From Burkholderiales bacterium (lineage in GTDB: Bacteria; Pseudomonadota; Gammaproteobacteria; Burkholderiales; Burkholderiaceae_C), in NCBI GenBank assembly GCA_016192425.1, contig JACPUE010000011.1:1-64000 (forward strand): a stretch of 64,000 nt of DNA, in the 5' to 3' direction. Shown piece by piece: positions 49,390 to 64,000 of the stretch. Each line of letters begins with the position of its first letter. The stretch's first letter is position 1. The position numbers and the translations under genes were made by a program. The notes under the pieces are model-generated. The model did no database searches. It saw nothing but the letters and a program-made list of their open reading frames with translations, and was not told the DNA's origin.

Positions 49390-51025
49390 CAATCGGCATA
49401 GGGGGCCTCCATTGTAGGAGGCACCCCTGCCACACCACCCGGCATGCGGGTCCGCACCGGGCGGTTCGAGAGTTTGAGGTCATGACAGTCGTGGCAGTCC
49501 CAACCGGTCAAAGTACGCAATGGTCAACACGCGTTTGATGGCCCCGTCGCTGTTGCGCCACCACCTGTGGCAGTTGCCCGCCACCTGTTTGGCCACATCC
49601 TCCGAGGCCCCCAGCGCCTTGAGTTCCCGATAGATCGCCTTGGGCCGCTTCCAGTGTCTGAGCTGGATAGCCCTCAGTCGATGGCGTAGCCACTCGTCCA
49701 GCTCTCGCCAGACTCTTGGCGTTTGCGCCATCCCGAAGTACGCCTTCCAGCCCAGCAGGTAGGATCTGAGCTTCTGCACCACTTGCGCCATGCCGCGCCC
49801 TCCCGAGCGGCGCGTGAGCTGTCGGATGCGGGCCTTGAAGTTGTCCAGTGCCTTGTGGGCCACTGCACATTTGACTTCCTTGCCTTTGGCCACCCATAGC
49901 TCGTAGCCCAGGAATTTGCGCCCGAAGGCGCTGCCTACCGCGCTTTTGGCTTCGTTGATCTGAAGCTTCAAGCCCGCGTACAGTTTCCTGAGCAAGGCCA
50001 TGACCCGCTCACCAGCCCTTTTGCTGCCCACATAGACGTTGCAGTCGTCGGCGTAGCGCGCGAAGCTGTAACCCCGCACCTCCAATGCCTTGTCCACTTC
50101 GTCCAGCAGCACGTTGGCCAGCAGTGGGGACAGCGGCCCGCCCTGAGGCGTGCCCAGATGGCGATCAACCACCACTCCACCATCCATGATCCCGGCGTTG
50201 AGGTACGCCCGGATCAGCCGGATCACTCCAGCGTCGTCTGTGCGTTTCTTGAGCCTGTCGATCAGGATGTCGTGGTTGACCCGGTCAAAGAATTGGGCCA
50301 GGTCTACGTCCACCACCACGCGTTTGCCCGATTGGACGTACGCACGCGCGGCCTTGACCGCGTCGTGGGCTCGTCTGCCGGGGCGAAACCCGTGGCTGTG
50401 CTCGCTGAAGGTGGGATCGATGATGGGTTGCAGTATCTGCAGCAGTGCTTGCTGGATCAGTCGATCTGTCACCGTAGGGATGCCCAGCTCGCGCTGGCTC
50501 CCGTCGGGTTTGGGGATCATCACCTTGCGTACCGGGCTGGGCCGGTAGCGTCCTGTCAGCAGTGCAGATCGGATGTCGGGCCAGCTTTGGCGTATGACCT
50601 GGGCGGTTTGCTCGATGTCGAGCCCATCGACCCCGGCTGCGCCTTTGTTGGCCTTGACCCGTTTCCATGCTGTCTGCAGGTTCTGTCTCGTCAGCGCCGC
50701 CTGCAGCAGGCCTCCTGTGCCTGCTATCGGCTTTGCCGTCCCTGTGGCTGGGTGTTCGTGCAACGTACCTCGGGTTTCGTCGCTGGCAGTGTCTGGCCCG
50801 GCTTCACCGTGCCGCCTTCCTGCCCGCCCGGATTGCTCCGGCATCTGACGCATGACCTTGTGGCTTTGCATGTCCTCAGTCACTCACTCTCGTTCGGTCC
50901 TTCGCTCTTGCCTTGTGGCCTCAGCGGCCCCGGCTCCAGCTACTACGACCTCTGCTGACTTCTCGCTGCGGCAATGCCGTCGCCCTTTCAGGCGTGAGGC
51001 GAGATCTCCCCAGGTAAGAACGCAC
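49390..51025 (-). mobile_element. Group II intron
   Basis: Minus-strand intron. The 5' end is placed near 51021-51025, where the minus strand reads GTGCGTTCTTACC (GUGYG-like start), followed by ribozyme sequence up to the maturase gene. The 3' end, placed at about 49390, is where similarity to the older copy (from 48868) stops; the GC-rich domain V candidate is GAACCGCCCGGTGCGGACCC and its complement-like GCATGCCGGGTGGT. Exact boundaries and class are not proven by sequence inspection alone. Confidence 0.75.
49480..50871 (-). CDS. ltrA: Group II intron reverse transcriptase/maturase
   Basis: A 463-aa protein from ATG 50871 (a GTG at 50883 would add four residues). RT domain blocks: TAWKRVKANKGAAGVDG, IPKPDGSQRELGIPTVTDR, FSEHSHGFRPGRRAHDA, DVDLAQFFDRVNHDIL, GTPQGGPLSPLLANVLLDEVD and the catalytic YADD (FARYADDCNVYV). 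A maturase (X) domain follows, with KLRSYLLGWKAYFGMAQ and the conserved WWRNSD...YFDRLGLPRLS end. No HNH endonuclease domain is visible. It needs the surrounding intron RNA to splice and move. All RT motifs are intact, so it may be active. Confidence 0.93.
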   Translation of the reverse strand: MQSHKVMRQMPEQSGRAGRRHGEAGPDTASDETRGTLHEHPATGTAKPIAGTGGLLQAALTRQNLQTAWKRVKANKGAAGVDGLDIEQTAQVIRQSWPDIRSALLTGRYRPSPVRKVMIPKPDGSQRELGIPTVTDRLIQQALLQILQPIIDPTFSEHSHGFRPGRRAHDAVKAARAYVQSGKRVVVDVDLAQFFDRVNHDILIDRLKKRTDDAGVIRLIRAYLNAGIMDGGVVVDRHLGTPQGGPLSPLLANVLLDEVDKALEVRGYSFARYADDCNVYVGSKRAGERVMALLRKLYAGLKLQINEAKSAVGSAFGRKFLGYELWVAKGKEVKCAVAHKALDNFKARIRQLTRRSGGRGMAQVVQKLRSYLLGWKAYFGMAQTPRVWRELDEWLRHRLRAIQLRHWKRPKAIYRELKALGASEDVAKQVAGNCHRWWRNSDGAIKRVLTIAYFDRLGLPRLS

Positions 51026-51026
51026 A

Positions 51027-51989
51027 CCTTCATCGCACAACCGCCGCATTTACACCCTGAACAACAAGACCCGCGTCATGGGACTTGGCCCCGTGCATCG
51101 CATCTCCTTCGACGAAGCCACCAAGCGGGCACGCAAAATTCGCGTGCTGCTGGATGACGGCATTGACCCGCTGGCCGAGCGTGACCACAAGAAGGCAGAG
51201 CAAGCCCTGAGCAAAACCTTCAAGGAGTGCGCGGCAGAATTCATCCGCAGCCATGAAGCGGGCTGGAAGTCCGCGAAGCACACCGCACAGTGGTCGGCAA
51301 CGCTGGAAGCCTACGCTTACCCCACTATCGGAGACTTGGCGGTACAGAACATCAAGGTGGCACACGTCAAGAAGGTCATCGAACCGATCTGGCGCACCAA
51401 GAATGAAACCGCCGAGCGGGTTCGATCTCGCATCGAGAAGGTTCTGGCGTGGGCCACCGTACATGGCTATCGAACCGGCGACAACCCGGCACGATGGTCA
51501 GGCTACCTCAGCGAAATCTTCCCCAAACGGGCTGCTGTGCGTAAGGTGAAGCATCATCCTGCACTACCGTATTTGGAGCTACCTGCCTTCATGCGCCTGC
51601 TGGAAAACACCGCAGGTCGAGGCGGATGGGTGCTGCGCTTCCTGATCCTGACCGCCACCAGAACGACCGAGACGCGAGCCGCCGAATGGTCGGAAATCGA
51701 CATGGAAGAACGCCTGTGGTGCATTCCGGCTGAACGCATGAAGGCATCACGCCCGCACCGTGTTCCGCTGTCGGAGCCAGCGATGGAAATCCTGCGCTAC
51801 ATGAAGGCCATCAACGATGCACACCCCACGCCATCGAAGTACGTCTTCAACGGCCAGACCTGGGGCAAGCATCCCTCGGAGGCCATCATGTTGATGCGGC
51901 TGAAACACATGGGCCGCACCGACATTGTTCCGCACGGCTTGTCCAGGCGACGGTGGCGACTTCTTGCCAGACTCGATTTCATGGCATAG
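51027..51989 (+). pseudogene. P4-type tyrosine integrase, truncated at both ends
   Basis: The frame reads RIYTLNNKTRVMGLGPVHRISFDEATKRAR..., which is integrase sequence that begins in mid-domain right at the group II intron's 5' end; the N-terminal ~50-60 residues are missing. The core continues with the first catalytic Arg region (ILTATRTTETRAAEWSEID) and stops matching at DIVPHG (about 51940), just where the catalytic HGFR motif should be; the reading frame then runs into unrelated sequence. The His-x-x-Arg and Tyr catalytic residues are absent, so it cannot recombine. Confidence 0.85.
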
Positions 51990-51996
51990 TATGCCA
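51982..51996. promoter_or_regulatory. ParD operator palindrome TGGCATAGTATGCCA
   Basis: A perfect 15-bp odd palindrome 28 bp before the parD start codon, in the likely promoter; ParD/ParDE complexes usually repress their own promoter through such sites. Confidence 0.65.
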
Positions 51997-52023
51997 ATGC
52001 ACACATTGATTCAGGAGGCTCCC

Positions 52024-52302
52024 ATGCCAACCCGAAACGTTGTCCTGACCGACCATCAGGCTCACTTTGTCGAACAGCTCGTCACCTCCGGGCGTTACCA
52101 GAACGCCAGCGAAGTTCTGCGCGAAGGGCTGAGGCTGGTTGAGCGCCGGGAAGCGGAAGACGAAATGCGTCTTGCCGCCTTGCGTGATGCGGCCAGTGTG
52201 GGCATTGCAGACATCGAGGTCGGCAACTTCCGTAGTTTTAGCTCGGCAGACATGCTTGGTCAGCATCTGGCTGCACTGACTTCCGAAGTGATTGGCGCGT
52301 AG
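52024..52302 (+). CDS. parD: Type II toxin-antitoxin antitoxin, ParD family
   Basis: A 92-aa antitoxin from ATG 52024, with a strong AGGAGG ribosome binding site 7 bp upstream. The N-terminal ribbon-helix-helix reads MPTRNVVLTDHQAHFVEQLVTSGRYQNASEVLREGLRLVE, the classic ParD/CopG pattern with the 'GRYQNASEVLREGLRLLE' core; the C-terminal part wraps the toxin. The stop overlaps the ParE GTG start by 1 nt. Next to degraded integrases, the pair may stabilise this genomic island. Confidence 0.92.
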   Translation: MPTRNVVLTDHQAHFVEQLVTSGRYQNASEVLREGLRLVERREAEDEMRLAALRDAASVGIADIEVGNFRSFSSADMLGQHLAALTSEVIGA

Positions 52303-52646
52303 TGGTCGAACGGATTTGGACTGTTCGCCTATCGGCTGCCGCCGAGGCTGACTTTCGCCAGATTCTGCGCTGGACGGTAGATCATTTCAGCTCCGCGCAG
52401 GCGCGAATTTATGCCGAAACCCTGTCAACAGCACTGAAAGACCTATGCGCCGGCCCATCCATCATTGGGGTCAAGGAACGGCCGGAAATCGGTAGCAACA
52501 TCTGGACACTCCATGTCGCGCGGAACGGTCGCAAGGGGCGACATTTCATTATGTTCCGAGTCGGCGCCGCCCAAGATAGCAAGGTGATCGACGTTCTTCG
52601 GCTCCTGCATGACGGCATGGATCTGGCAAAGCACATGCCATCGTAA
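52302..52646 (+). CDS. parE: Type II toxin, RelE/ParE family
   Basis: A 114-aa toxin starting at GTG 52302. ParE pattern: VRLSAAAEADFRQILRWTVDHFSSAQARIYAETL, then the beta-sheet IWTLHVARNGRKGRHFIMFRV and the C-terminal IDVLRLLHDGMDLAKHMP, the typical 'I.V.RILH..MD...H' end. ParE toxins inhibit DNA gyrase; RelE-like relatives cut mRNA. Sequence fits ParE better. Co-translated with parD. Confidence 0.9.
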   Translation: MVERIWTVRLSAAAEADFRQILRWTVDHFSSAQARIYAETLSTALKDLCAGPSIIGVKERPEIGSNIWTLHVARNGRKGRHFIMFRVGAAQDSKVIDVLRLLHDGMDLAKHMPS

Positions 52647-52726
52647 GGCATGAGTCCCATGCCATTCTTCTTGACTCTTGAAGTATCCTATACGGCTATA
52701 AATTCGGGAACCTCACGCACGTAGCG

Positions 52727-53045
52727 TCATCCATCCGATGCTCCTCGAATAGCAATGATGGTCGCCCTGCTCACTTGGTAGCTCGCCGCCATGCTGCTGA
52801 CCGTCGCCCCTGCCGCCAGGGCTTTACGAATCGCACGCTGCTGGTCTGGCGTGGTCTTGGATGGCCGCCCCATGTGCGTGCCAGCCGCACGGGCACAGGC
52901 CTGACCGGCTTGGGTGCGTTCAATAATCAAGTCCCGCTCAAAGTCGGCAACCGCCGCCAGCATCTTGACCATCAACGCGCCAGCGGATGAAGTCAGGTCG
53001 AGGTTGCCAAGCTGCAAGACCACGAGCCGGACACCCCGCATCATC
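52727..53045 (-). pseudogene. C-terminal stub of a Tn3-type resolvase/serine recombinase
   Basis: The minus-strand frame matches a resolvase only from RGVRLVVLQLGNLDLTSSAGALMVKMLAAVADFERDLIIERTQAG to the C-terminal HTH (GRPSKTTPDQQRAIRKALAAGATVSSMA...), written here in parts. The catalytic N-terminal Ser domain is missing; upstream of the RGV point the frame runs into the antisense of an unrelated recombinase gene. It marks an old transposon end. Confidence 0.8.
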
Positions 53046-53101
53046 GCGAAGCTGTCGGCATGGTGGAAGAACGCGCCACCTGGCAACAGCGTCATCGCAA
53101 G

Positions 53102-54000
53102 ATGCCTCGGCCAGACGCTTACACAGTAGAGGCCGCCGTGCGGCGCTACCTCCAGGAACGTCGTCAGCTTGGCTTCGCCCTGAAGTCCCCCGGTACCGAG
53201 TTGCTGCGGTTCGCTCGGTTCGCCGACGCCCAAGGTCATCGCGGAGCGCTGACGCAGGAGCTTCAGCTCGAATGGGCGTGACAACATGTCCTGCGAACCA
53301 GTGCTGTCACCGCAGCCCGAAGGCTCGAGATCGTTCGACCCTTCGCGGCCTACTACCGTCAGTTCGAGATTGACACCGAGGTGCCGCCAACCGGGATCCT
53401 TGGGCGCGGGCACAGAAGGTCACACCCCACATCTACACTGACCAGGAGGTCTGCGAGTTGCTTGAGCAAGCGGGGCGCTTGCCCCCCGAGGCGGCCTGCG
53501 CCCGCTGATGTACCGCACACTGTTCGGCCTCATCGCCGCTGCGGGGCTCAGAGTCTCCGAGGCCTTGAAGTTGCAGGTCGAAGATGTTGATCTGGAGGGT
53601 GCCACGATCACCGTACGCCAGACCAAGTTCCACAAGTCCAGATGCCTACCTCTGCATGTGAGCGTCGTGCGCGCCCTGTCGGAGTACCGACAGGTACGAG
53701 ACCAACACGCTGATCCCGGGCCGAATGCTCTGTTCTTCATCTCGCGCATTGGCGGCATCTTGCCAGTCGGTACGGTGCAGAACGTCTTCAGACGCATGCG
53801 TCCTCGGCTCGGGTGGCAGGCGCGCGGCGACCACGCCAACCCTCGCATCCATGACCTGCGCCACACCATGGTGGTCCGCCGCGTCCAACTGTGGCACGAG
53901 GCCAGAGCGTCCATCGATCACGCCATGTTCTGGCTGCGCACCTACCTCGGCCACGCCAAGATCTCCGACACCTACTGGTACCTCAGTTGGAGGGGGCGAT
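53102..54000 (+). pseudogene. XerC-like tyrosine recombinase, broken
   Basis: Starts MPRPDAYTVEAAVRRYLQER..., runs to an in-frame stop at 53279-53281, continues in the same frame (VLRTSAVTAARRLEIVRPFA), then needs a frameshift near 53405 to reach the catalytic domain RTLFGLIAAAGLRVSEALKLQ...RIHDLRHTMVVRR...YLGHAKISDTYWYLS. Arg, His-x-x-Arg and the Tyr region are still visible, but the C-terminus is cut after DTYWYLS by the PKS stop region. Nonfunctional as read. Confidence 0.8.
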
Positions 54001-54001
54001 G

Positions 54002-57000
54002 CTAACCGGCGCTCTCGCTGAAGCGGCCTGCGATGCGCGGCGCGCGGCGGGGTCGCCGGTCGACCGCCGACAGCAGCGCGCGCAGCGCCTTGTTGAACGC
54101 GTCGGGCGCGTTGAGGAATGGCAGGTGCCCGGCCTGCTCGACGACCACGAACCTTGCGTGGTCGATGCCCTTTTTCAGCAGCGCCACCTGGTCGATGGGG
54201 AACGCGATGTCATGGCTGCCGGCCACCACCAGTGTGGGCACCTCGATCTCCTGCAGACGGCTTCGTGTGTCGAATGTGAACAGGCTCGAGATGAAGTTCA
54301 TCAGGGCCTGCGGATCGACCGTCAAATGGCATTGCCGAATGATCGACAGGCTGCGCGTCACTTCCGGCGCCAGAAAGTCGGCGCCGTAGATGTTGCTGAA
54401 CTCCATCTGGTAGGTCAGCAACGGCGAGTCGGAGTAGTCCTCCAGATCCTTCTGGCTGACACCCCGCATGCGCGCATCGGTGGGTGTGGTGCACACCAGC
54501 GTCAGCGACGCCAGGCGCCTTGGGTGGCGCAGCGCCGCCAACTGCGCGATGTTGCCGGCCACGCACCAGCCCACCAGATGCACCTGCTCGATGCCGAGGG
54601 CGTCCATCAGTTCGATCAGGTCGTCGGCCAGATCCTCGAAGCTGAAGCCGACACCCGTGTAGACGCTGCCGGCATGACCCGGCAGGTGCGGAAAGATCAA
54701 CCGGTGGTCGGCGCCGAACTCGCGGATCTGGTCGTCCCAGATCGACTTGCCGAAGGCCAACGCGGTGAGGAAGATCAGTGCCGGGCCCTGGCCGCATTCG
54801 AAGTACTCGCAGGTCTGGCCGCGGCTGCTGACGAACTCGCCGCGGCTCAGGCGCGCCGCGTGGTCCAGGGCCGTCTCGCTGCGCCCGGCCGCCAGCAGGC
54901 GTTGCAGCACACGTTCGTGCAGGTCGTCCGGCACGCTCGGCACGGCGACGGTGCCGGCCGGCTCGCTGCCCAGGTGCCGGTCAGCGAGCCGGCGGGCCAG
55001 CAGGTCGACACTGAGCGCCTCGCCGGCGGCCACGCCGAACAGACCGACATCCACCGACGCGCCGTAGCGCTGCTGCAGGCGGGCAAACACCAGCCCCCAG
55101 GTGAGCGAACTGAGCCCAGCGGTGGCGAGGTCTCGCGCGGGGTCGAGGGCGACGTCGTCGCCCACCGCGTCGGCGCAGGTTCGGAGCACCAGGCCATGGA
55201 TCGCCTCGCGCTCGGCAGCCTGGCCGGCGTCCTGCGCCGGATCGGCATCGGACGGCGGCGCGGCATCGCGCACGAACGCAGACAACTGCGGCGCGGAGAT
55301 GGCCTGCTGTCGGTAGCCGGCGCGGCGCAGCGCGGCCTGCAGCGCCTGGGCGTCGGGCAGGCGCTTGCCGGCCACCGGTGGCCACAGGTCGGTCAGGTCC
55401 ATGATCAGTCGCAGCCCGTCGCACTCGACCGGGCCCACCACGAAGACCAGGCCGTCGGCTTCGCCCGCCGCGGCACGCCGCTCCAGCAGGTCTGCCGCCT
55501 CGCTGGCGCAGGGGTCCTGCAGGTTCACCACCACCAGATCGAAGTGGCAGCCTTCCAGCCGCTCGAGCAACGCGCCAGGCACCAGCGGCGTGAGCGCTGA
55601 AAAGTCCACGCCGGGCACCTGTTCGCGCCCGCGCTCCACCATCGCCTGCGCCACCGGCGACCATCCCGACACCATGCGGCAGCTCACCGGCACACCGGGC
55701 GCCGCCGACTCGGCCAAGGCCGCGATGAATTCCATGCCGCCGGCGCCGATCATCAGCATCGACAACTGCTCCTGACCCGCCCCCCGTTCGGCCAGGTACA
55801 TCGACGCGGCCAGGCGGTGCACGAATGCCAGCTTGGAATCGGCGGTGAGCATGCCCGCCAGGCGAGAGAAGGCCGCCGCGAGGTGTTCCGGGCCGGGCCG
55901 CACGCCATCGAGCATGCCGCTCAGAATGGCCGCCAGCAATTCGCAGTACGGCTGCGATTCGGGCAGTGCGCGCAACCCGATGTCGTACTGCGAGCGAAGC
56001 TGGTCGAGATCCTTGCGGCTGCGGACGGAGGCCGGCAAGGCCAGGCGCAGGCCGGTGGGATCGGACACCAGGAAGGGAGTGGCCATCATGCGCTTAACGA
56101 TGTAGGCCGCCATCATGCCGGTGACATCCGGCGACGCGGCGCCGAGGCGCACCAGACCGGGCCGGCCGGACGCCGACAGCCGCTCGCGCACGCGGGCCAC
56201 CACGTGCGTGGCCAGGCCCATGAGCTGCTGGCGGCGGCCGCCCAGGCCCGCGGCGCCTTGCGGTTGGGCCAGGTACGCGGCCAGCCGGTCGGCCGCCTCC
56301 ATGGCACCGCTCGGCAACCGCAGGTACAGGGCAAAGGAGCCGTCGGGTGCGCGGCGCTCCTCGAAGGCCACCCCCTTGTCGCTGAACACGGCGTAGACGA
56401 TGCCCACGGTGGTGAGCCGCAGGTATTCCGCGACACCGCTGACCTGCTCTTCGATGTAGCGCTCGATGTCGGCCACCGTGCTGGCCGACTGCAGCAGCTT
56501 CGGGGCCGCCCCCACGGCGCCCACCACCGCCTTTGCCGGCGCCTCGGGCGCGGGATGGCGCGCCAAGGCCGCCTGCCGTGGTGGCTTGGGCGTGGGCGCC
56601 GGGCTGGCAGGCCCTGCAGGCGCCCGAGCTTCCTCGCGCCCGGCCCCCGGCCAGAAAGCACGCAACTCGAACGGCGCCCCCGGCAGCGACACCCGCCGCC
56701 GAGGGCCACCAGCCCATGGGCCCGCGCCCCAATCGACGGTGGCACCGGCCACCCAGCGGCGCGCCAGCGCCTGAAGGTCATCGGCGGCAGCCGACGCCAG
56801 CGTGGCGCCCTCACCCGCCGCCGGTGCGGCCCCTGCCTCCGCAGAGCAGACGACCCGGGCGTCGTCGGCGCCGTCGAGCCAGGCCCGCAGCGCTTGCGCG
56901 GCGGAGTCCGGCGAGTGGGCGACCCAGGCCAGGCGGTGGGCGAACGCGCGCCGGCCCACCCGCAGCGTGTGGGCCACATCGCACAGCCGCAAGCGGCTGC

Positions 57001-60000
57001 CATCGGGCTGGCTGTCTGGCTCGAGGCGGTGCGCCAATGCCTCGGCCGCGCGCCGCAGCGCCGGCCGGGACCGCGCCGAGAGCACCAGCAACTCGGCGGC
57101 GCGCCCGTCGTCACCCGGCGTCGCGGTGAGCGACGCGGGCGCCGCCTCGACAACGAGGTGCGCGGCCGTGCCGCCGGCGCCGAAGGCATTGATGCCCATG
57201 CGCGGAAGGTCGGCCGCCGTGAGCGGCAGCCTGTCCTGCCCGGTCTGGACCACGGCCCGCGCGTCGGCCAGGCCCAGTTGCGGATTGATGGCGTCGCCGG
57301 TGAGCGTGGACACCAGGGTGCGATGTTCCAACTGCAGCACCACCTTGAACAGCTGAGCCATGCCTGCCGCGGCCTCGGCATGCCCGATGTTGGGCTTGAC
57401 GGAGCCCAGCCGCAGCGGTTCGCCCTGCCGCTGTCGGGTGTGATAACCCGTTTTCAGCGCGTCCACCTCGGCGGCATCGGTGACCTCGTCGCCGCTGCAT
57501 TGCAGCTCGACATAGACCACCGAATCCGCGGCGAGGCCGGCGGCATCAAGCGCCTTGCCCATCACGCGGCTCTGCCCGCGGGACGACGGCGCGAAGTAGT
57601 TCAGCGTGTGGCCCGCATGCCCGACGGCACTGCCGCGGATCACGGCGTGGATGGTGTCGCCGTCCTGCAGTGCGGCCGCCAGCGGCTTGAGCACCACCGA
57701 GGCCACGCCCTCGCCCGCGAGGAAGCCCCGGCCACCGGCGCCGAAGCTGCGGCTGGTGCCGTCCTCGCTGATCAGCCGGCCCTGCGCCAGCGTCTGCATC
57801 CGGGAGGGATGCAGGTTGAGGTTGACGCCGCCGGCCACGGCCATGGCGCACTCCCCGCTGCGCAGGCTCTCGCAGGCCATGTGCAGCGCCACCAGCGACG
57901 ACGAGCACATGGTGTCGACCGACAGGCTCGGCCCGGTCAGGCCCAGCGCATGCGACACCCGGTTCGCGATCGATGCGAACGACAGCGTGGCGGCCTGGGG
58001 CTGCCCGGCGAGCGACTGCTCGAATCCCACCAGGTTGTAGCTGGCGGCGGTGACGCCGACGAAGACGCCCACCTCCAGGCCGGCGCGGCCGCGTTCGGCC
58101 AGCCAGCGGTCATTGCCGTAGCCGGCGTCTTCGAGGGCATGCCAGCACGACATCAGGAACAGGCGCTCCTGCGGATCGATGACCTCGGCATGCAATGGCG
58201 AGATGCCGAAGTACCCAGGGTCGAAGAGCTCGACACCGTTGAGGAAGGCACCCCAGCCCTGCGGCGCGTGGGCGTCCGCGGCGGCCCCCTTGTCCGGCCA
58301 ACGGCGGGCCGGACCAGCGTTGTCGGCGCGCTGGCCAGCCTTCAGCAGTTGCCAGAAGGCGTCCACCGAATCGGCACCCGGAAAGCGGCAGGCCATACCG
58401 ACGATGGCGATGCCGCCCTGATCGGCGCGACCCGCGGGGCTCGTGGCCGCAATCGTGGCCGCAATCGTGGCCGGAATCGTGGCGGGCAAGGCTGCAGGCC
58501 GCAGCACGGGCGAGGCCGGCGGCGATGCGTGCGGCGGCAATGCGTGCGGAGATGCGGCCGCGGCATCGGCCACGCGCGGCGGTGCCGCGATCGCCTGGTC
58601 ATCGGCCGTCGCCACGGCAGCGCCGGGCGCGTGCCCGGCGTCGGCCGCCACCCAGGCCACGAGCGCATCGCGCTGCGTGGCCAGGAAGTGGGCGGCGAGC
58701 GCATCGATGGTGGGATGGTCGAAAAACATCGCATTCCGGACATCGGCGAAGCGCTCGGCCAGCAGCCCCACGAGCTGCGTGACCGAGATCGAGTCGACGC
58801 CGTAGGTGGCGAGCGACTCCTCGGCATCAATCTGCCCCTGCGGCACCTGCAGCAAGCCGCCGACGAGCTGCCCGAGCGCCGCCACACCCAGGCGGTGGAG
58901 CGCGGCATCGTCCAGCCCGCCGGCGCCCGTGCCGGCCGGCAACGCCGCCGGTGCCGACCGCGCGGTCACCCGTTCGGCGCCACCGTCGCGCGGGGGCCGG
59001 GCGGGCGGCAGCGGGGCCGTCGTCTTGAGCAGCGCCAGCTGGCGGTGCGGCCCGCGGAGCAAGGCCTCCAGGGCCTGCCAGCCTTCGTCGGGCTCGATCG
59101 AGGCCAGGCCGTACTGCTTCATGCGCGCCTCGTAGGCCTCACCGGCGGCCACGCCGACGCTTCCCCACCAACCCCAGTTCATCACCTTCACGCAGCAGGC
59201 CCCATGCCGGCCCAGAGCCTGCACGAACGCGTCCTTGAACACGCAGCCAGCCGCGTAATTGCTTTGCCCCGGGCTCCTGAAGAAGCTCTGCACGGACGAG
59301 AAGAACAACGCGAAGTCCAGATCGAGCGCGCCGAAGACCTGCGCCATGCGCACGCTGACGTCCACCTTCGACGCCAGGCTCGCGGCGAAGCGCGCCTCGT
59401 CCATGCCAGCGAGCCCCTGGTCACCGAGCACCAGCGCCGACTGCACCACGCCGTGGATGCGGCCGAAACGGCGCTGGACCTCGTCGCAGGCCGCCTGCAG
59501 GGCCGCGCGGTCGGTGGCATCGGCGGCGATGTAGTGCGGCGCCGGCCCGTGCTGCGACAGCCGGTCGATGGCCGACCGAATGCCCGCATCGGCGGCACGG
59601 CGCCCGATCCACACCACCTGCGCGCCATGTTGGCGCAGCACGTGTTCGCTCCAGGCCTGGCCGATGCCGCCGGCACCGCCGATGACCACGTACACGCCGT
59701 GCTGGCGGTACGCCGGAGCCGTGTCCAGCGCGGGCGTCACCGGCCGCAGGTGCTGTCGGTACCAGCGGCCACCGCGCCATGCCCAGGTGTTGCCCTGGGG
59801 GTCGGCCGACAAGGCCAGCACATCGGCCAGCGGCCAGGGCTGTTCCACGGGCAGGTCGATGGTCCGCACGCGCCAGTTCGGGTACTCCTTGGCCAGCGCG
59901 CCGACCAGGCCATGGAGGGCGGCGTGATCCGGGTGGATGGGCTCGCCTTCCAGCACGGCATGGGTCTGCGAGGTCAGCACGCTCCAATGCAGGGTCTTGG

Positions 60001-63000
60001 CGCCGAAGCCGACATCCAGCAACGCCTTGATCACCCGAAAACCGTGCAGCACACCGTGCTGCTGGGCCTCAATCAGCGCGTCGTCCGCAGGCCCTTGCGC
60101 CTGCGCCTCGGGCGCGATCCACACCACGTGCTCGAACGCATCATGGGCGGCCAGCGCATCGGCGATCGCGCCCTGGCGGTCGCCCGGCGCGAAATCAGCC
60201 ACCTGCAGCGAGGGGCAATGCCGACGCAGCACCGCGTGCTGCATGGCCGTGCCGCCGATGACGAGCACGCCACCGGCCAGCGGCGGCGCCGTGCCCGGAG
60301 CTGCCACGGCTTCCCACTCGGGCGCCAGCAGCGTGAGCTGGGCGGCCGCCACGCCGCCGCGCGCGGCCGGCGCCGCCTGCGCGTTGGCGCCACGCTCGAT
60401 CCGGGGCGCCGCCTTGGGCACGCCCGCGTCGCGGTCGAGCCAGTAGGCCTCACCGGCAAACGGGTAGGTGGGCAGGCTCACGCGCCGCGGCCGGTGCTGC
60501 GTGTCGAGGTCGTAGAGGCGGTGCCAGTCGAACACCATGCCCTTGACCCAAAGGTCGAGCACGTTGCCGAACTTGCCGCGCTCGACCCATTTGCCGACGG
60601 CCTCCTGCATCTCCTCGTCGGCCGCGAACACGGCCATGGCCTCGCGGTTGTGGCGCACATGGCCGCGGTAGAGGTCTTCGATCGCCTCCTCGTCGGCCAG
60701 GAAGGCGGTGAGCTTGTGCTGCAGCTCTGCCATCGAGCGCGCCAGCAAGGCCAGCCGCTCTTCCATCGGCTCGCGGCCCACCTGCAGCGTGAAGGCCAGG
60801 TCGGCCAGGCGCTCGTCGCCCCAGCCGCCGACCGCGAGGGCCGCGAGCAAGTGGCGCACGCGCTCGCGCAAGCGATCTTCGTTGCGCGCCGACAGAACCA
60901 CCAGCGCGGCGCCGGTGGGCACCGCTGTCTCGTGCGGCAGGGTGTCGACGTACTCCTCGATCACCACGTGGGCATTCGAACCCCCGGCGCCGAACGACGA
61001 GATGCCGGCACGCCGGGGCAGTTCCACGGCGCGCCCGTCCACGTCGATGACCGGCCGCTTCCATTCGGCCAGCTCGCGCTGCACGACGAAGGGCGTGGCC
61101 CCGAAGTCGATGTGCGGGTTGGGCGGATCGCTGTGCAGGCTGGGTGCGATGCGGCCATGCTGCAACTGCAGCAACACCTTGGTGATGCCGGCGATGCCGG
61201 CCGCGCTTTCGCAATGGCCGATGTTCGACTTCACCGAACCGATGGCGCAGAACTGCCGCGCCTGCGTGCTTTGCCCGAACGCCCGGCTCAGTGCCGCGAT
61301 CTCGATGGGGTCGCCCAACGGCGTCCCGGTGCCATGGGCCTCCAGGTAGCTGATGGTGCGGGCCTCGATGCCCGCATCGTGCAGCGCGGTGGAGATCACC
61401 GCCGCCTGCGACAGCGGATTGGGCACGGTGTAGCCATTGGTCCGACCGCCGTGGTTCAGCGCCGTGGCCTTGACCACGCCGTAGACGTGATCGCCGTCGG
61501 CGATGGCCTGGGCCAGCGGCTTGAGCGCGATGACGCCCACGCCCTCGCCGTCGATGAAGCCGTCGGCGCCGTCGCCGAAGGCGCGGCAACGGTCGCCGGC
61601 CGAGAGCATGCCCATGGCCGAGAGCGTGACGAACTGCGAGGGGTGGACGATCAGGTTGACGCCGCCGACCAGCGCCGCATCACAGGCCCCCGAGCGCAGG
61701 CTCTCCATCGCCAGGTGCAGCGCGGTCAACGACGATGAACACGCCGTGTCCACCGCCATGCTCGGTCCGTGGAAGTCGAACAGGTACGAGACCCGGTTGG
61801 CGATCGACCAATAACGCGCACCGCCGCTGTACTGCCCGTTCATCACGCCGGCGAAGACGCCTACCTTGCCGCCGGCGGCCAGGGTGCCCGGCGTATAGCC
61901 GGCATCCTCGATGCTGGCGTAGGCCTCCAGCAGGAACAGGCGCTCCTGCGGGTCGATGAACTGCGCGTCACGCGGCGAGATGTTGAAGAACAGCGGGTCG
62001 AAATGGTCATGCCCGTCGATGAAGCCACCCCACTTGCTGTAGCTCTTGCCCAGGCGCCCCCGCTCGGGGTCGAAATGCACATCGGCATCCCATCGGCCGG
62101 CTGGCACCTCGGTGATGCAGTTGCGCCCTTCGGCGAGGTTGCGCCAGAACTCGCTCACATTGCGCGCCTGCGCATAGCGGCCCGACAGGCCGACGATGGC
62201 CACGTCGTGGCGCAGCGTGGGCAGGTGAGGCAGCGTCGCCCCCGCCTGCCCCGCCTGCGGGTGGCTGCTGCCGCGCCGCAGGCGGTTGGGCACGGCCCGT
62301 GCCGACATCGCCGGCACCTGCGCGCTGGCGGCCGCCGGCGCCCGCGTGGCGGCCGAAGCCCCCACGCTGCCCGGGCCGAGCTTCAGCACCTTCGCCATCG
62401 CCTGGGGTTGGGTCTGCAGGAAGTGGCTCACCAGTTCGTCGATGCTGCGGTACTCGAAGAACAGCGTGCTGCTCACGCCCTGGAACTCGCCCTGCAGCAC
62501 CTTGGTCATCTCGACCACCAGGATCGAGTCGATGCCATAGGTCTCCAGCGGCTCGGCGCTGTTGATCCGCTGCACCGGCAGCTTCAGCGCCTTCGACAGC
62601 AGCCCCTTGAAGTAGGCCACGGCCTTGTCGCGCAGGGCGCCGCCCTCGGTAGGCGCCGCCTCTTGCTCGCGGCGGCGGGCCTGCGGCGCCGGGCCTCGGG
62701 CAATCGCCGCGGCCGGGGCGGACGGGGCCACGTCGACAGGGGTCGAAGCGGCCACCGCGGCGGCGGCGGCCGGGCCGCGCGCTGCGGTCACGGCAGCGGC
62801 CACACCCTCCAGCGCCTGGCGCACCACGCCATCGCTCTCGGCCGCGATGATCTGCTGACCCAGCGCCGCCTGTTCGCCCGCGGGAGTGAGCACGGCGCGG
62901 AAGCCTTCATCCTCCAGCACTGCACGCCAGCTGGCCGCCGACAGCCCCGGGCAGCCCGGAATGCGCAGCTCCGCATCCTCATACAGCCACCAGCCTTCGA

Positions 63001-64000
63001 GCAGCCCGAAGCTCAGGTGCGTGAACAGGTGGCTGCTGCTGATCTCGTTGAGCAGCAGCACGCCGTTCGTGCGCAGCGCCGCCTTGGCGTTGCGCACGCT
63101 GTGCCGGATGTTCGGCGTGGCGTGCAGCACATTGGTGGCCACCACCAGGTCGTAGCGCCCGGCCTCGATGCCCTGGCCGGCCAGCGGCCGGCCGATGTCG
63201 AACAAGCGGTACTGCAGGTACGGATTGGCCGGCCCGTACTGCGCCTCGGCGTGGAATAAGAAGGCCTTGGAGAGGTCGGTGTAGCAATACTCGTCGATGT
63301 GCGCCGCATACGGTCGCAGGCGCTCGAACAGCAGCACGCTGCTGCCGCCGGTGCCCGCACCGATCTCCAGCAGACGCAGCCGCGCCTGCGGATCCTGCCG
63401 CAGCCGCGCCTGCACGAACGCCACCACCGCGTCGGCCAGCAACTGGTTGAAGTGGTCGGCCACCGGGTTGTCCTTGTAGACCCCCTCCACCAGGCGCATC
63501 GACGACTCAGGGAACATCACATCCGTGGCCGACACGCGGCCGCTCAGAATATCGGGTAGGGCCTGGAGGGTGGTTTCCACCAGCGTCGCCTGCGCCCTCA
63601 GGCCCGGCGTGTCCGGCCACGAGGCCTTGCGCTGCGCCCACTCGGCCCAGGCCACCTGGAGATCGACCACACGCATGCCCTGCGTCTCGGCCCGCTGGCC
63701 ATCGAACCGCAGATCGCCCCGCTCGGCCAGGGCCCGCAGCGTCTGCTCGAGCCAGCGCAGGTACAGCGGCCGCAGCCCCAGCACCCCGGCCACCTCGGCC
63801 ACCGTGCCCTGAACGCCTGCCTTCAGCCCCAGCGCCTGCATTTGCCCGCACAGCAATTGGCCCAGGATCTCGCGCAGCGCCGCGTCTACGGTCGCGCCCG
63901 CGGACACCGGCCCTGGCAGCGCGCGCGAAGGCGCCTGCCCGATGGCATCCACCAGCGACGGGTACTCCTGCGCGAACAGCTGCACCGTGTCGGTCGGCGC
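54002..64000 (-). CDS. Large trans-AT type polyketide synthase, 5' end outside window
   Basis: Reading frame open to the window edge; residues are counted from the codon ending at 63985, giving 3327 visible residues. Order: C-methyltransferase (about 130-400; SAM motif LLEIGAGTGGSS at 206-217); ACP1 (Ser487, YGIDSI); KS1 (591-1015; Cys749 in DTACSSS, His884 in HGTGT, KSNIGH); docking linker ending LPTYPFAGEAYW; KR (about 1200-1640; GGAGGIG, Tyr1577 in SNYAAG); ACP2 (Ser1732, YGVDSI); KS2 (1857-2279; Cys2027, but Gln2162 in place of the first catalytic His); linker; methyltransferase-like segment (about 2490-2890); ACP3 (Ser2960, GLSSL); alpha/beta-hydrolase (about 3070-3310; Cys3141, Asp3259, His3287). 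No acyltransferase domain, so a trans-acting AT is needed. Stop is TAG at 54002-54004, abutting a broken recombinase. Confidence 0.9.
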   Translation of the reverse strand, partial: APTDTVQLFAQEYPSLVDAIGQAPSRALPGPVSAGATVDAALREILGQLLCGQMQALGLKAGVQGTVAEVAGVLGLRPLYLRWLEQTLRALAERGDLRFDGQRAETQGMRVVDLQVAWAEWAQRKASWPDTPGLRAQATLVETTLQALPDILSGRVSATDVMFPESSMRLVEGVYKDNPVADHFNQLLADAVVAFVQARLRQDPQARLRLLEIGAGTGGSSVLLFERLRPYAAHIDEYCYTDLSKAFLFHAEAQYGPANPYLQYRLFDIGRPLAGQGIEAGRYDLVVATNVLHATPNIRHSVRNAKAALRTNGVLLLNEISSSHLFTHLSFGLLEGWWLYEDAELRIPGCPGLSAASWRAVLEDEGFRAVLTPAGEQAALGQQIIAAESDGVVRQALEGVAAAVTAARGPAAAAAVAASTPVDVAPSAPAAAIARGPAPQARRREQEAAPTEGGALRDKAVAYFKGLLSKALKLPVQRINSAEPLETYGIDSILVVEMTKVLQGEFQGVSSTLFFEYRSIDELVSHFLQTQPQAMAKVLKLGPGSVGASAATRAPAAASAQVPAMSARAVPNRLRRGSSHPQAGQAGATLPHLPTLRHDVAIVGLSGRYAQARNVSEFWRNLAEGRNCITEVPAGRWDADVHFDPERGRLGKSYSKWGGFIDGHDHFDPLFFNISPRDAQFIDPQERLFLLEAYASIEDAGYTPGTLAAGGKVGVFAGVMNGQYSGGARYWSIANRVSYLFDFHGPSMAVDTACSSSLTALHLAMESLRSGACDAALVGGVNLIVHPSQFVTLSAMGMLSAGDRCRAFGDGADGFIDGEGVGVIALKPLAQAIADGDHVYGVVKATALNHGGRTNGYTVPNPLSQAAVISTALHDAGIEARTISYLEAHGTGTPLGDPIEIAALSRAFGQSTQARQFCAIGSVKSNIGHCESAAGIAGITKVLLQLQHGRIAPSLHSDPPNPHIDFGATPFVVQRELAEWKRPVIDVDGRAVELPRRAGISSFGAGGSNAHVVIEEYVDTLPHETAVPTGAALVVLSARNEDRLRERVRHLLAALAVGGWGDERLADLAFTLQVGREPMEERLALLARSMAELQHKLTAFLADEEAIEDLYRGHVRHNREAMAVFAADEEMQEAVGKWVERGKFGNVLDLWVKGMVFDWHRLYDLDTQHRPRRVSLPTYPFAGEAYWLDRDAGVPKAAPRIERGANAQAAPAARGGVAAAQLTLLAPEWEAVAAPGTAPPLAGGVLVIGGTAMQHAVLRRHCPSLQVADFAPGDRQGAIADALAAHDAFEHVVWIAPEAQAQGPADDALIEAQQHGVLHGFRVIKALLDVGFGAKTLHWSVLTSQTHAVLEGEPIHPDHAALHGLVGALAKEYPNWRVRTIDLPVEQPWPLADVLALSADPQGNTWAWRGGRWYRQHLRPVTPALDTAPAYRQHGVYVVIGGAGGIGQAWSEHVLRQHGAQVVWIGRRAADAGIRSAIDRLSQHGPAPHYIAADATDRAALQAACDEVQRRFGRIHGVVQSALVLGDQGLAGMDEARFAASLASKVDVSVRMAQVFGALDLDFALFFSSVQSFFRSPGQSNYAAGCVFKDAFVQALGRHGACCVKVMNWGWWGSVGVAAGEAYEARMKQYGLASIEPDEGWQALEALLRGPHRQLALLKTTAPLPPARPPRDGGAERVTARSAPAALPAGTGAGGLDDAALHRLGVAALGQLVGGLLQVPQGQIDAEESLATYGVDSISVTQLVGLLAERFADVRNAMFFDHPTIDALAAHFLATQRDALVAWVAADAGHAPGAAVATADDQAIAAPPRVADAAAASPHALPPHASPPASPVLRPAALPATIPATIAATIAATSPAGRADQGGIAIVGMACRFPGADSVDAFWQLLKAGQRADNAGPARRWPDKGAAADAHAPQGWGAFLNGVELFDPGYFGISPLHAEVIDPQERLFLMSCWHALEDAGYGNDRWLAERGRAGLEVGVFVGVTAASYNLVGFEQSLAGQPQAATLSFASIANRVSHALGLTGPSLSVDTMCSSSLVALHMACESLRSGECAMAVAGGVNLNLHPSRMQTLAQGRLISEDGTSRSFGAGGRGFLAGEGVASVVLKPLAAALQDGDTIHAVIRGSAVGHAGHTLNYFAPSSRGQSRVMGKALDAAGLAADSVVYVELQCSGDEVTDAAEVDALKTGYHTRQRQGEPLRLGSVKPNIGHAEAAAGMAQLFKVVLQLEHRTLVSTLTGDAINPQLGLADARAVVQTGQDRLPLTAADLPRMGINAFGAGGTAAHLVVEAAPASLTATPGDDGRAAELLVLSARSRPALRRAAEALAHRLEPDSQPDGSRLRLCDVAHTLRVGRRAFAHRLAWVAHSPDSAAQALRAWLDGADDARVVCSAEAGAAPAAGEGATLASAAADDLQALARRWVAGATVDWGAGPWAGGPRRRVSLPGAPFELRAFWPGAGREEARAPAGPASPAPTPKPPRQAALARHPAPEAPAKAVVGAVGAAPKLLQSASTVADIERYIEEQVSGVAEYLRLTTVGIVYAVFSDKGVAFEERRAPDGSFALYLRLPSGAMEAADRLAAYLAQPQGAAGLGGRRQQLMGLATHVVARVRERLSASGRPGLVRLGAASPDVTGMMAAYIVKRMMATPFLVSDPTGLRLALPASVRSRKDLDQLRSQYDIGLRALPESQPYCELLAAILSGMLDGVRPGPEHLAAAFSRLAGMLTADSKLAFVHRLAASMYLAERGAGQEQLSMLMIGAGGMEFIAALAESAAPGVPVSCRMVSGWSPVAQAMVERGREQVPGVDFSALTPLVPGALLERLEGCHFDLVVVNLQDPCASEAADLLERRAAAGEADGLVFVVGPVECDGLRLIMDLTDLWPPVAGKRLPDAQALQAALRRAGYRQQAISAPQLSAFVRDAAPPSDADPAQDAGQAAEREAIHGLVLRTCADAVGDDVALDPARDLATAGLSSLTWGLVFARLQQRYGASVDVGLFGVAAGEALSVDLLARRLADRHLGSEPAGTVAVPSVPDDLHERVLQRLLAAGRSETALDHAARLSRGEFVSSRGQTCEYFECGQGPALIFLTALAFGKSIWDDQIREFGADHRLIFPHLPGHAGSVYTGVGFSFEDLADDLIELMDALGIEQVHLVGWCVAGNIAQLAALRHPRRLASLTLVCTTPTDARMRGVSQKDLEDYSDSPLLTYQMEFSNIYGADFLAPEVTRSLSIIRQCHLTVDPQALMNFISSLFTFDTRSRLQEIEVPTLVVAGSHDIAFPIDQVALLKKGIDHARFVVVEQAGHLPFLNAPDAFNKALRALLSAVDRRPRRAPRIAGRFSESAG
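54050..54780 (-). other. Terminal alpha/beta-hydrolase (thioesterase-like) domain with Cys nucleophile
   Basis: The fold is recognisable from LIFLTALAFGKSIWDDQ, FPHLPGHAGS and the nucleophile elbow LVGWCVAGNIAQLA. The GxSxG position holds Cys3141 (codon 54563-54565). The acid is Asp3259 in VAGSHDIAFP and the base His3287 in EQAGHLPFLN. It is the last domain of the PKS, in the chain-release position. Confidence 0.85.
57142..58415 (-). other. KS2 domain with altered active site (KS0 candidate)
   Basis: The nucleophile Cys2027 (codon 57905-57907) is in DTMCSSS, and the second His (KPNIGH, residue 2202) is kept. The HGTGT motif is replaced by QCSGD, with Gln2162 (codon 57500-57502). The Cys-to-Gln distance is 135 residues, identical to the Cys-to-His distance in KS1, so the substitution is positional and not an alignment artefact. 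Such a KS is expected to accept and pass chains without condensation. Confidence 0.8.

What the first reader, a model, noticed from the sequence alone, without database searches (positions are those of the whole stretch)
54050..54780. PKS release domain with a cysteine nucleophile (GWCVAG)
The terminal alpha/beta-hydrolase keeps Asp and His but carries Cys where Ser is usual. Cys-type thioesterases are known in a few assembly lines that make strained rings: the ObiF thioesterase of obafluorin (beta-lactone) and the SulM thioesterase of sulfazecin (beta-lactam). Here it follows a non-condensing KS, an odd methyltransferase-like segment and an ACP, so the release chemistry may be unusual. Strained-ring formation is inference only.
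Basis: partly seen in the sequence, partly recalled or inferred. Interest (0 to 1): 0.75.

Follow-up and report, generated by a model that had tools for sequence, protein, structure and literature searches.

The report
Cysteine-type polyketide release domain
The last domain of a large bacterial polyketide-making enzyme uses a cysteine where most relatives use a serine, a swap kept in one distant sister cluster, so it may release its product by closing a ring rather than by plain hydrolysis, but the product is unknown.

Summary
The PKS frame (minus strand, stop at 54002, open to the contig end) finishes KS–KR–ACP–KS0–MT*–ACP–hydrolase. The elbow is GWCVAG, with Asp and His in place; an AlphaFold2 model puts Cys124 after strand 5, Asp242 after strand 7, His270 after strand 8. 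One true relative was found (G793, other genus, same family): 70% identical in the hydrolase, elbow GWCLAG, in a 10,921-residue frame. So Cys is kept in 2 of 2; the 26 other rows of that alignment have Ser.

The link to ObiF and SulM holds only as analogy. The domain scores as PF00561; PF00975, found at 147 bits in a control, gives no hit. Seven other assembly-line ends, G793 included, carry the same kind of domain; with the window these 8 share a His after strand 4. Five have Ser, three Cys (window, G793, Sinorhizobium medicae).

MT* folds like a C-methyltransferase (low-confidence model) and seems to lack key residues.

Best reading: a Cys-type release domain, more likely cyclising than hydrolytic. 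A beta-lactone is possible, unproven, and not favoured over a larger ring.

The parts
54002..64000 (-). trans-AT-type PKS gene, 3' part; frame stays open to the contig end (66335, beyond the window), at least 4110 aa
54062..54847 (-). C-terminal alpha/beta hydrolase (PF00561) release domain; lead-in extends to 54934
54554..54571 (-). nucleophile elbow GWCVAG; Cys codon 54563-54565
54209..54211 (-). catalytic Asp (GSHD), after strand 7 of the model
54125..54127 (-). catalytic His (GGHLPF), after strand 8 of the model
54686..54688 (-). His after strand 4 (FPHLPG), shared by the 8 assembly-line PF00561 domains compared
55001..55252 (-). last ACP (approximate limits), Ser codon 55106-55108 in GLSSL
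   Evidence: the G793 counterpart hits PF00550
55265..56476 (-). MT*: C-methyltransferase-like fold, no sequence-family hit, probably a pseudo-methyltransferase
57038..58411 (-). KS0: DTMCSSS and NIGHAE kept, HGTGT replaced by QCSGDE
58688..58876 (-). ACP of the penultimate module
59162..59698 (-). KR of the penultimate module (Tyr kept, YxxxN reads YAAGC); no DH hit in P0001
60806..62215 (-). elongating KS (HGTGT intact) of the penultimate module
62891..63409 (-). C-methyltransferase of the module before it

Best explanation
This is the chain-release domain of a trans-AT PKS/NRPS assembly line. It comes from the PF00561 esterase/enol-lactonase side of the alpha/beta hydrolases and carries a Cys-His-Asp triad. 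Proposed steps: the last elongating module makes a beta-hydroxyacyl-ACP; KS0 passes it on without elongation; MT* is a structural or docking relic; the last ACP hands the chain to Cys124 by transthioesterification; the acyl-S-enzyme is attacked by a hydroxyl of the chain (or of a second chain) to release a lactone. Shown here: sequence, predicted fold and triad placement, conservation in one relative, KS0 motif loss. Inferred: catalysis, the acyl-thioester intermediate, cyclisation rather than hydrolysis, and which hydroxyl attacks.
For: Cys in 2 of 2 orthologous modules, with the hydrolase the best kept part: 70% against 46% for MT* and 54% for the whole stretch. Triad in canonical places, model mean pLDDT 84.2. 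The same altered KS motif in both clusters, E-L/M-Q-C-S/V-GDEVTDA. Penultimate module KS-KR-ACP (window) and KS-KR-MT-ACP (G793), no DH hit in either. Literature passages: the ObiF C-to-S mutant gives only the beta-hydroxy acid, and a pikromycin thioesterase with one active-site change (Koch 2017, title seen in the reference list, not read; the passage speaks of thioester against oxoester) is cited as a better macrocyclisation catalyst.
Against: No activity or product is known, and the window cluster is cut by the contig end. Five of the 8 assembly-line relatives use Ser. The precedents are recalled as another thioesterase family. SulM is mixed: its C-to-S variant still made monobactam, which was then rapidly hydrolysed, so Cys is not strictly needed to close a ring. 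The SulM paper also names a Cys NRPS thioesterase, AB3403, as uncharacterised. The KR lacks the usual Asn, so the beta-hydroxyl is not certain. Only one ortholog supports the conservation.
Confidence: 0.53

Rival explanations
1. Hydrolytic release: the Cys enzyme uses water and gives a linear beta-hydroxy acid; the Cys is a tolerated swap in a thioesterase.
For: Sequence and structure neighbours shown are mostly hydrolases: esterases, enol-lactonase, meta-cleavage hydrolases. A second assembly-line lineage with Cys (S. medicae) shows that the swap recurs, with no link to ring formation known to me.
Against: Conservation of the Cys and its surroundings (GWC-V/L-AGNIAQL) across a module only 55% identical. 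In ObiF it is the Ser variant that only hydrolyses.
Confidence: 0.29
2. Beta-lactone release (a special case of cyclisation): the beta-hydroxyl made by the penultimate module attacks the acyl-S-Cys to close a four-membered ring, as in obafluorin.
For: Cys plus Asp after strand 7, as reported for ObiF and SulM. A beta-hydroxyl is expected beside the carbonyl (KR without DH).
Against: Different hydrolase family. The Asp position is the common one of the superfamily. Another hydroxyl is predicted near the heterocycle, so larger rings are possible. A beta-lactone next to a conjugated chain would be fragile (general chemistry).
Confidence: 0.14
3. The domain is not the release enzyme in practice (editing or inactive), and the chain leaves by another enzyme.
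For: The first oxyanion-loop residue, His in 21 of 26 other hydrolases, is Thr here, and the last ACP has GLSS instead of the usual G-x-DS.
Against: Strong conservation of the hydrolase, terminal place in both clusters, and that His is missing from 6 of 7 assembly-line domains.
Confidence: 0.08

Closest known systems
   Same: KS0-MT*-ACP-hydrolase with GWCLAG; 55% over query residues 12-827, 70% in the hydrolase
   Different: Penultimate module carries an extra C-methyltransferase, nearly identical to the one before it
ObiF and SulM thioesterase domains (obafluorin, sulfazecin)
   Same: Cys nucleophile and Asp after strand 7 in the SulM paper's numbering
   Different: NRPS thioesterases, recalled as PF00975; the window domain matches PF00561 and not PF00975
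PF00561 release domains at the ends of other assembly lines: Streptomyces xanthii and NBC_01361, Kitasatospora NBC_00039 (beside LnmK and HMGS genes), G007, Bacillus velezensis (macrolactin locus by recalled gene order), Sinorhizobium medicae
   Same: C-terminal place, PF00561 the best Pfam hit in the 5 of these 6 that were scanned, His after strand 4 in all 6
   Different: Ser except S. medicae (ASCFG); 21-30% identical to the window domain; two, S. xanthii and Kitasatospora, also just pass the PF00975 cut-off (26.6 and 29.6 against 26.4)
PcaD 3-oxoadipate enol-lactonase and related esterases
   Same: Best NCBIfam profiles and fold neighbours
   Different: Free-standing enzymes; the window domain scores 134.8 against the TIGR02427 cut-off of 255.85

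Membership tests
ObiF/SulM-type (PF00975) thioesterase | Match to the PF00975 Thioesterase model (that ObiF and SulM belong to it is recalled) | tested here: not met
   six families up to E = 1, best PF00561 at 2.6e-27, no PF00975; G793 domain likewise up to E = 0.1, while a control protein scored 147.1 bits with PF00975
ObiF/SulM-type (PF00975) thioesterase | Cys nucleophile | tested here: met
ObiF/SulM-type (PF00975) thioesterase | Asp on the loop after strand 7 | tested here: met
   (model); this is the common layout of the superfamily
ObiF/SulM-type (PF00975) thioesterase | Close structural match | tested here: inconclusive
   neither is among the 50 rows shown, which excludes nothing
ObiF/SulM-type (PF00975) thioesterase | Forms a four-membered ring | not testable with these tools
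   needs biochemistry
PF00561 alpha/beta hydrolase | Score over the curated cut-off | tested here: met
   96.5 bits against 25.8
PF00561 alpha/beta hydrolase | Ser in a G-x-S-x-G elbow (usual, not required) | tested here: not met
   G-W-C-V-A-G; Ser in the 26 rows other than window and G793
PcaD enol-lactonase (TIGR02427) | Score over the curated cut-off | tested here: not met
   134.8 against 255.85
Assembly-line PF00561 release domains (grouping proposed here) | Fused C-terminally to a megasynthase, with His after strand 4 | tested here: met
   8 of 8 fused domains; other rows 0 of 26 and 1 of 28 (the two sets overlap in part)
Assembly-line PF00561 release domains (grouping proposed here) | One clade apart from other hydrolases | tested here: inconclusive
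   98/96; not recovered after one row was added, one trimmed and two dropped
Non-elongating ketosynthase (KS0) | Active-site His of HGTGT lost | tested here: met
   QCSGDE (window), QCVGDE (G793); 7 of the 11 KS compared keep HGTGT
PKS C-methyltransferase (for MT*) | C-methyltransferase fold over the whole domain | tested here: met
PKS C-methyltransferase (for MT*) | Acid after strand 2 and catalytic His, as in the true C-methyltransferases of the same enzymes | tested here: inconclusive
   by eye: TDLS seems replaced by SGW and NVLHAT by NLQDPC, while the glycine-rich IGAGG is kept; hhalign gave no usable alignment

The most novel reading that the evidence does not exclude
A polyketide release domain outside the PF00975 thioesterases that independently evolved a Cys nucleophile and closes a beta-lactone (or another strained lactone) on a beta-hydroxyacyl chain delivered by a dedicated KS0-pseudoMT-ACP hand-over unit.
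Probability: 0.14. Interest if true: 0.75.

Novelty: new variant of a known kind. Interest (0 to 1): 0.45.

Why it matters
Cys release domains are called less common in the papers read, and the two examined there close four-membered rings. This one scores with a different hydrolase family, so it could test whether Cys itself, rather than one family's pocket, steers release toward ring closure. It also picks out PF00561-type release domains as a set with a simple mark (His after strand 4) in which Ser and Cys both occur, and points to a trans-AT cluster with an unassigned product, flanked by mobile elements.

Tried and rejected
Scan of genome contigs with MT*+ACP+hydrolase: 174 pattern matches, 1 confirmed relative, a 32% hydrolase; its single-sequence patterns probably explain why no ortholog appeared. 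Viral contigs with A4: 36 pattern matches, none confirmed. MT* alone: no match in plasmids; in PDB sequences one hit at E = 0.038, unrelated.

Genome samples for the ortholog: besides the window's own, 5 of 398 (phylum, hydrolase query), 162 of 399 (order) and 8 of 399 (family) had matches at the limits used. Apart from G793, the matches shown cover the hydrolase part, a few reaching further back at weak identity. One search's list was cut and not fully seen.

The rest of the window's cluster was sought in its own genome: 10 KS-type matches, of which only the two of this contig's PKS lie in a frame over 838 residues. So the product cannot be read from the window's organism. ObiF and SulM are not among the structural neighbours shown; this excludes nothing.

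Considered and dropped: base error (G793 keeps the Cys); a PHA-synthase-like Cys hydrolase (recalled analogy; no such family among the listed hits); MT* as an active methyltransferase (key residues seem missing by eye, though IGAGG is kept; hhalign to the true C-MTs gave probability 0.35%).

Literature: searches listed no paper that I recognised as describing a PF00561-type Cys release domain or this cluster; titles and abstract starts only, lists capped. Seen further: SulM paper, passages and section 4; ObiF paper, passages; conglobatin and phthoxazolin papers, passages. Koch 2017 on pikromycin: cited there, not read. Macrolactin identity of the B. velezensis locus is recalled; one search gave listings only.

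Rows dropped: the tree left out L079 and L027 (long branches); A3, used for the hydrolase model, left out L009, L010, L011. A1 itself took 28 of the 35 matches listed plus the window row, less repeats and near-repeats: L004, L021, L022, L025, L028, L029, L030 and L046 were not put in; the first seven have Ser and L046. In one search, 4 of 19 other own-genome PF00561 places were not reached. In one search the 29 new loci were read of 56 listed matches; of the 28 other than G007, 2 have neither Ser nor Cys at the elbow (Gly, Ala) and none has Cys.

Confidence moved from 0.55 to 0.53 and hydrolysis from 0.28 to 0.29.

Full report
What is there. The window is G000:C7:1-64000 of a 66,335-base contig. 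On the minus strand a PKS frame is open from the contig end to the stop at 54002, at least 4110 residues. P0001 covers its last 3327 residues. Pfam and motifs give in order: C-methyltransferase (193-365), ACP, KS (594 on), KR (1430-1608), ACP (1704-1766), a second KS, a segment without hits, an ACP (Ser at 2960) and Abhydrolase_1. The elbow is GWCVAG at 54571..54554.

The Cys is kept. A family-level sample of 399 genomes gave 9 with a match at E <= 1e-22: the window's own, one true relative and seven with generic hydrolases. The relative is G793 C10 476024-478471, 55% identical over residues 12-827 of an 829-residue query, in a frame of 10,921 residues. Its elbow is GWCLAG. In the hydrolase the two are 70% identical, in MT* 46%. 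In the 28-row alignment A1 the other 26 rows have Ser: the PKS-fused domain of Streptomyces xanthii and 25 others not known to be fused (frames up to 619 residues where the search lists gave them). In the window's own genome PF00561 hits 21 places, two of them in this domain; of the other 19, 15 could be aligned, with 13 Ser, 2 Asp and no Cys. The relative is rare: the window's own is the only one of 26 genomes of its genus, G793 the only one of 4 in its genus, and the window's own the only one of 350 in the class sample. Patchy spread fits horizontal transfer (inference).

Family. The domain scores 96.5 bits with PF00561 (cut-off 25.8) and PF00975 is not listed up to E = 1. As a control, a separate thioesterase-like protein of the S. 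xanthii cluster scores 147.1 bits with PF00975. NCBIfam's best models are PcaDC and PcaD, both far below cut-off. By sequence family it is therefore not an ObiF/SulM-type thioesterase, if these are PF00975 as I recall.

Other assembly-line hydrolases. Plasmid searches and a profile search of 398 genomes (56 matches, of which only the window's and one of G007's lie in frames over 600 residues) gave hydrolases fused to the ends of megasynthases: S. xanthii, Streptomyces NBC_01361, Kitasatospora NBC_00039, B. velezensis, S. medicae and G007. PF00561 is the best Pfam hit in the five scanned (NBC_01361 was not), and two of them also just pass the PF00975 cut-off. With the window and G793 these make 8. 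All 8 have His after strand 4; of other rows 0 of 26 (one of them, L079, unannotated) and 1 of 28 do, the two sets overlapping in part. Elbows: Ser in 5 (GASFG three times, GASAG, AASWG), Cys in 3 (window, G793, S. medicae ASCFG). The first residue of the oxyanion loop is His in 21 of 26 others (HG in 9) but in 1 of 7 assembly-line domains compared. Whether these form one clade is unsettled: 98/96, not recovered after adding the Bacillus row, trimming S. medicae and dropping two long branches. In all three trees window and G793 pair on a long stem.

What the line may make. G793 shows what looks like the complete cluster: a discrete AT (so trans-AT), an AprA-type loading unit with ACP, KS-DH-KR-ACP, KS0-ACP, two condensation stretches whose DxxxxDxxS motifs suit heterocyclisation, A with two carrier stretches, a nitroreductase-type domain, KS0-ACP, KS-KR-ACP, two KS-DH-KR, KS-DH-KR-MT, KS-KR-MT and the terminal unit. 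The A domain's PDB matches are led by linear gramicidin synthetase LgrA and 8xjz (two stretches each), then Txo2, the fuscachelin FscH domain, Txo1 and EntF (one stretch each); I recall the last four as serine modules, so an oxazole is an inference. The chain reaching release should carry a beta-hydroxyl and a second hydroxyl near the heterocycle. The terminal KRs keep Ser and Tyr but have YAAGC where YxxxN is usual. The same variant sits in the DH-KR-MT module, where dehydration needs reduction first, so it is probably active (inference).

Mechanism. In ObiF, Cys-to-Ser gives only the beta-hydroxy acid, and its authors cite an engineered pikromycin thioesterase as showing the greater reactivity of a thioester over an oxoester. 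In SulM, Cys-to-Ser still made monobactam but hydrolysed it rapidly, and Cys-to-Ala made none. By analogy an acyl-S-Cys favours attack by a hydroxyl over water, though Cys is not strictly required. Ring size is open: a macrolactone or macrodiolide through the distal hydroxyl, or a beta-lactone through the near one. I put cyclisation of any kind at about 0.55-0.6, of which beta-lactone 0.14, and hydrolysis at 0.29.

Verdict. The link to ObiF and SulM is an analogy across families. It is a new variant of a known kind, with an open product.

Noticed in passing
49480-54005: The strip beside the PKS end holds mobile-element pieces: a group II intron reverse transcriptase/maturase ORF (49480-50883 -), a phage-integrase ORF (51078-51989 +) and a tyrosine-recombinase fragment (53508-54005 +) overlapping the PKS stop (Pfam). 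A ParD/ParE-like pair (about 52024-52646 +) and resolvase-like sequence (about 52740-53080 -) were named only by reading.
   Followed up: partly
contig C7 end, 66335 (L002): The PKS gene is cut by the contig end, and the KS search of the assembly gave no other PKS-sized frame, so most of the assembly line is missing from this genome.
   Followed up: partly
L072 9900-10787 and 14760-15647 (G793): Two C-methyltransferase copies in neighbouring modules are identical in the stretch compared except its last two residues, and the KR strips before them read the same: a sign of recent module duplication.
   Followed up: partly
L078 2878-3777; L080 13257-25154: A Sinorhizobium medicae plasmid megasynthase ends in a PF00561 hydrolase with Cys (ASCFG), in a stretch with SagB-type dehydrogenase and 3-dehydroquinate synthase II genes; possibly an independent Cys case.
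   Followed up: partly
L070 16310-19999 (G793): AprA-type loading region (AprA_N, MT2-like) at the start of a trans-AT PKS/NRPS cluster.
   Followed up: no
L009, L082: A Streptomyces plasmid and G007 (same class as the window's genome) share a similar megasynthase end: PLP-enzyme-like stretch, by eye, then a PF00561 hydrolase with Ser.
   Followed up: no
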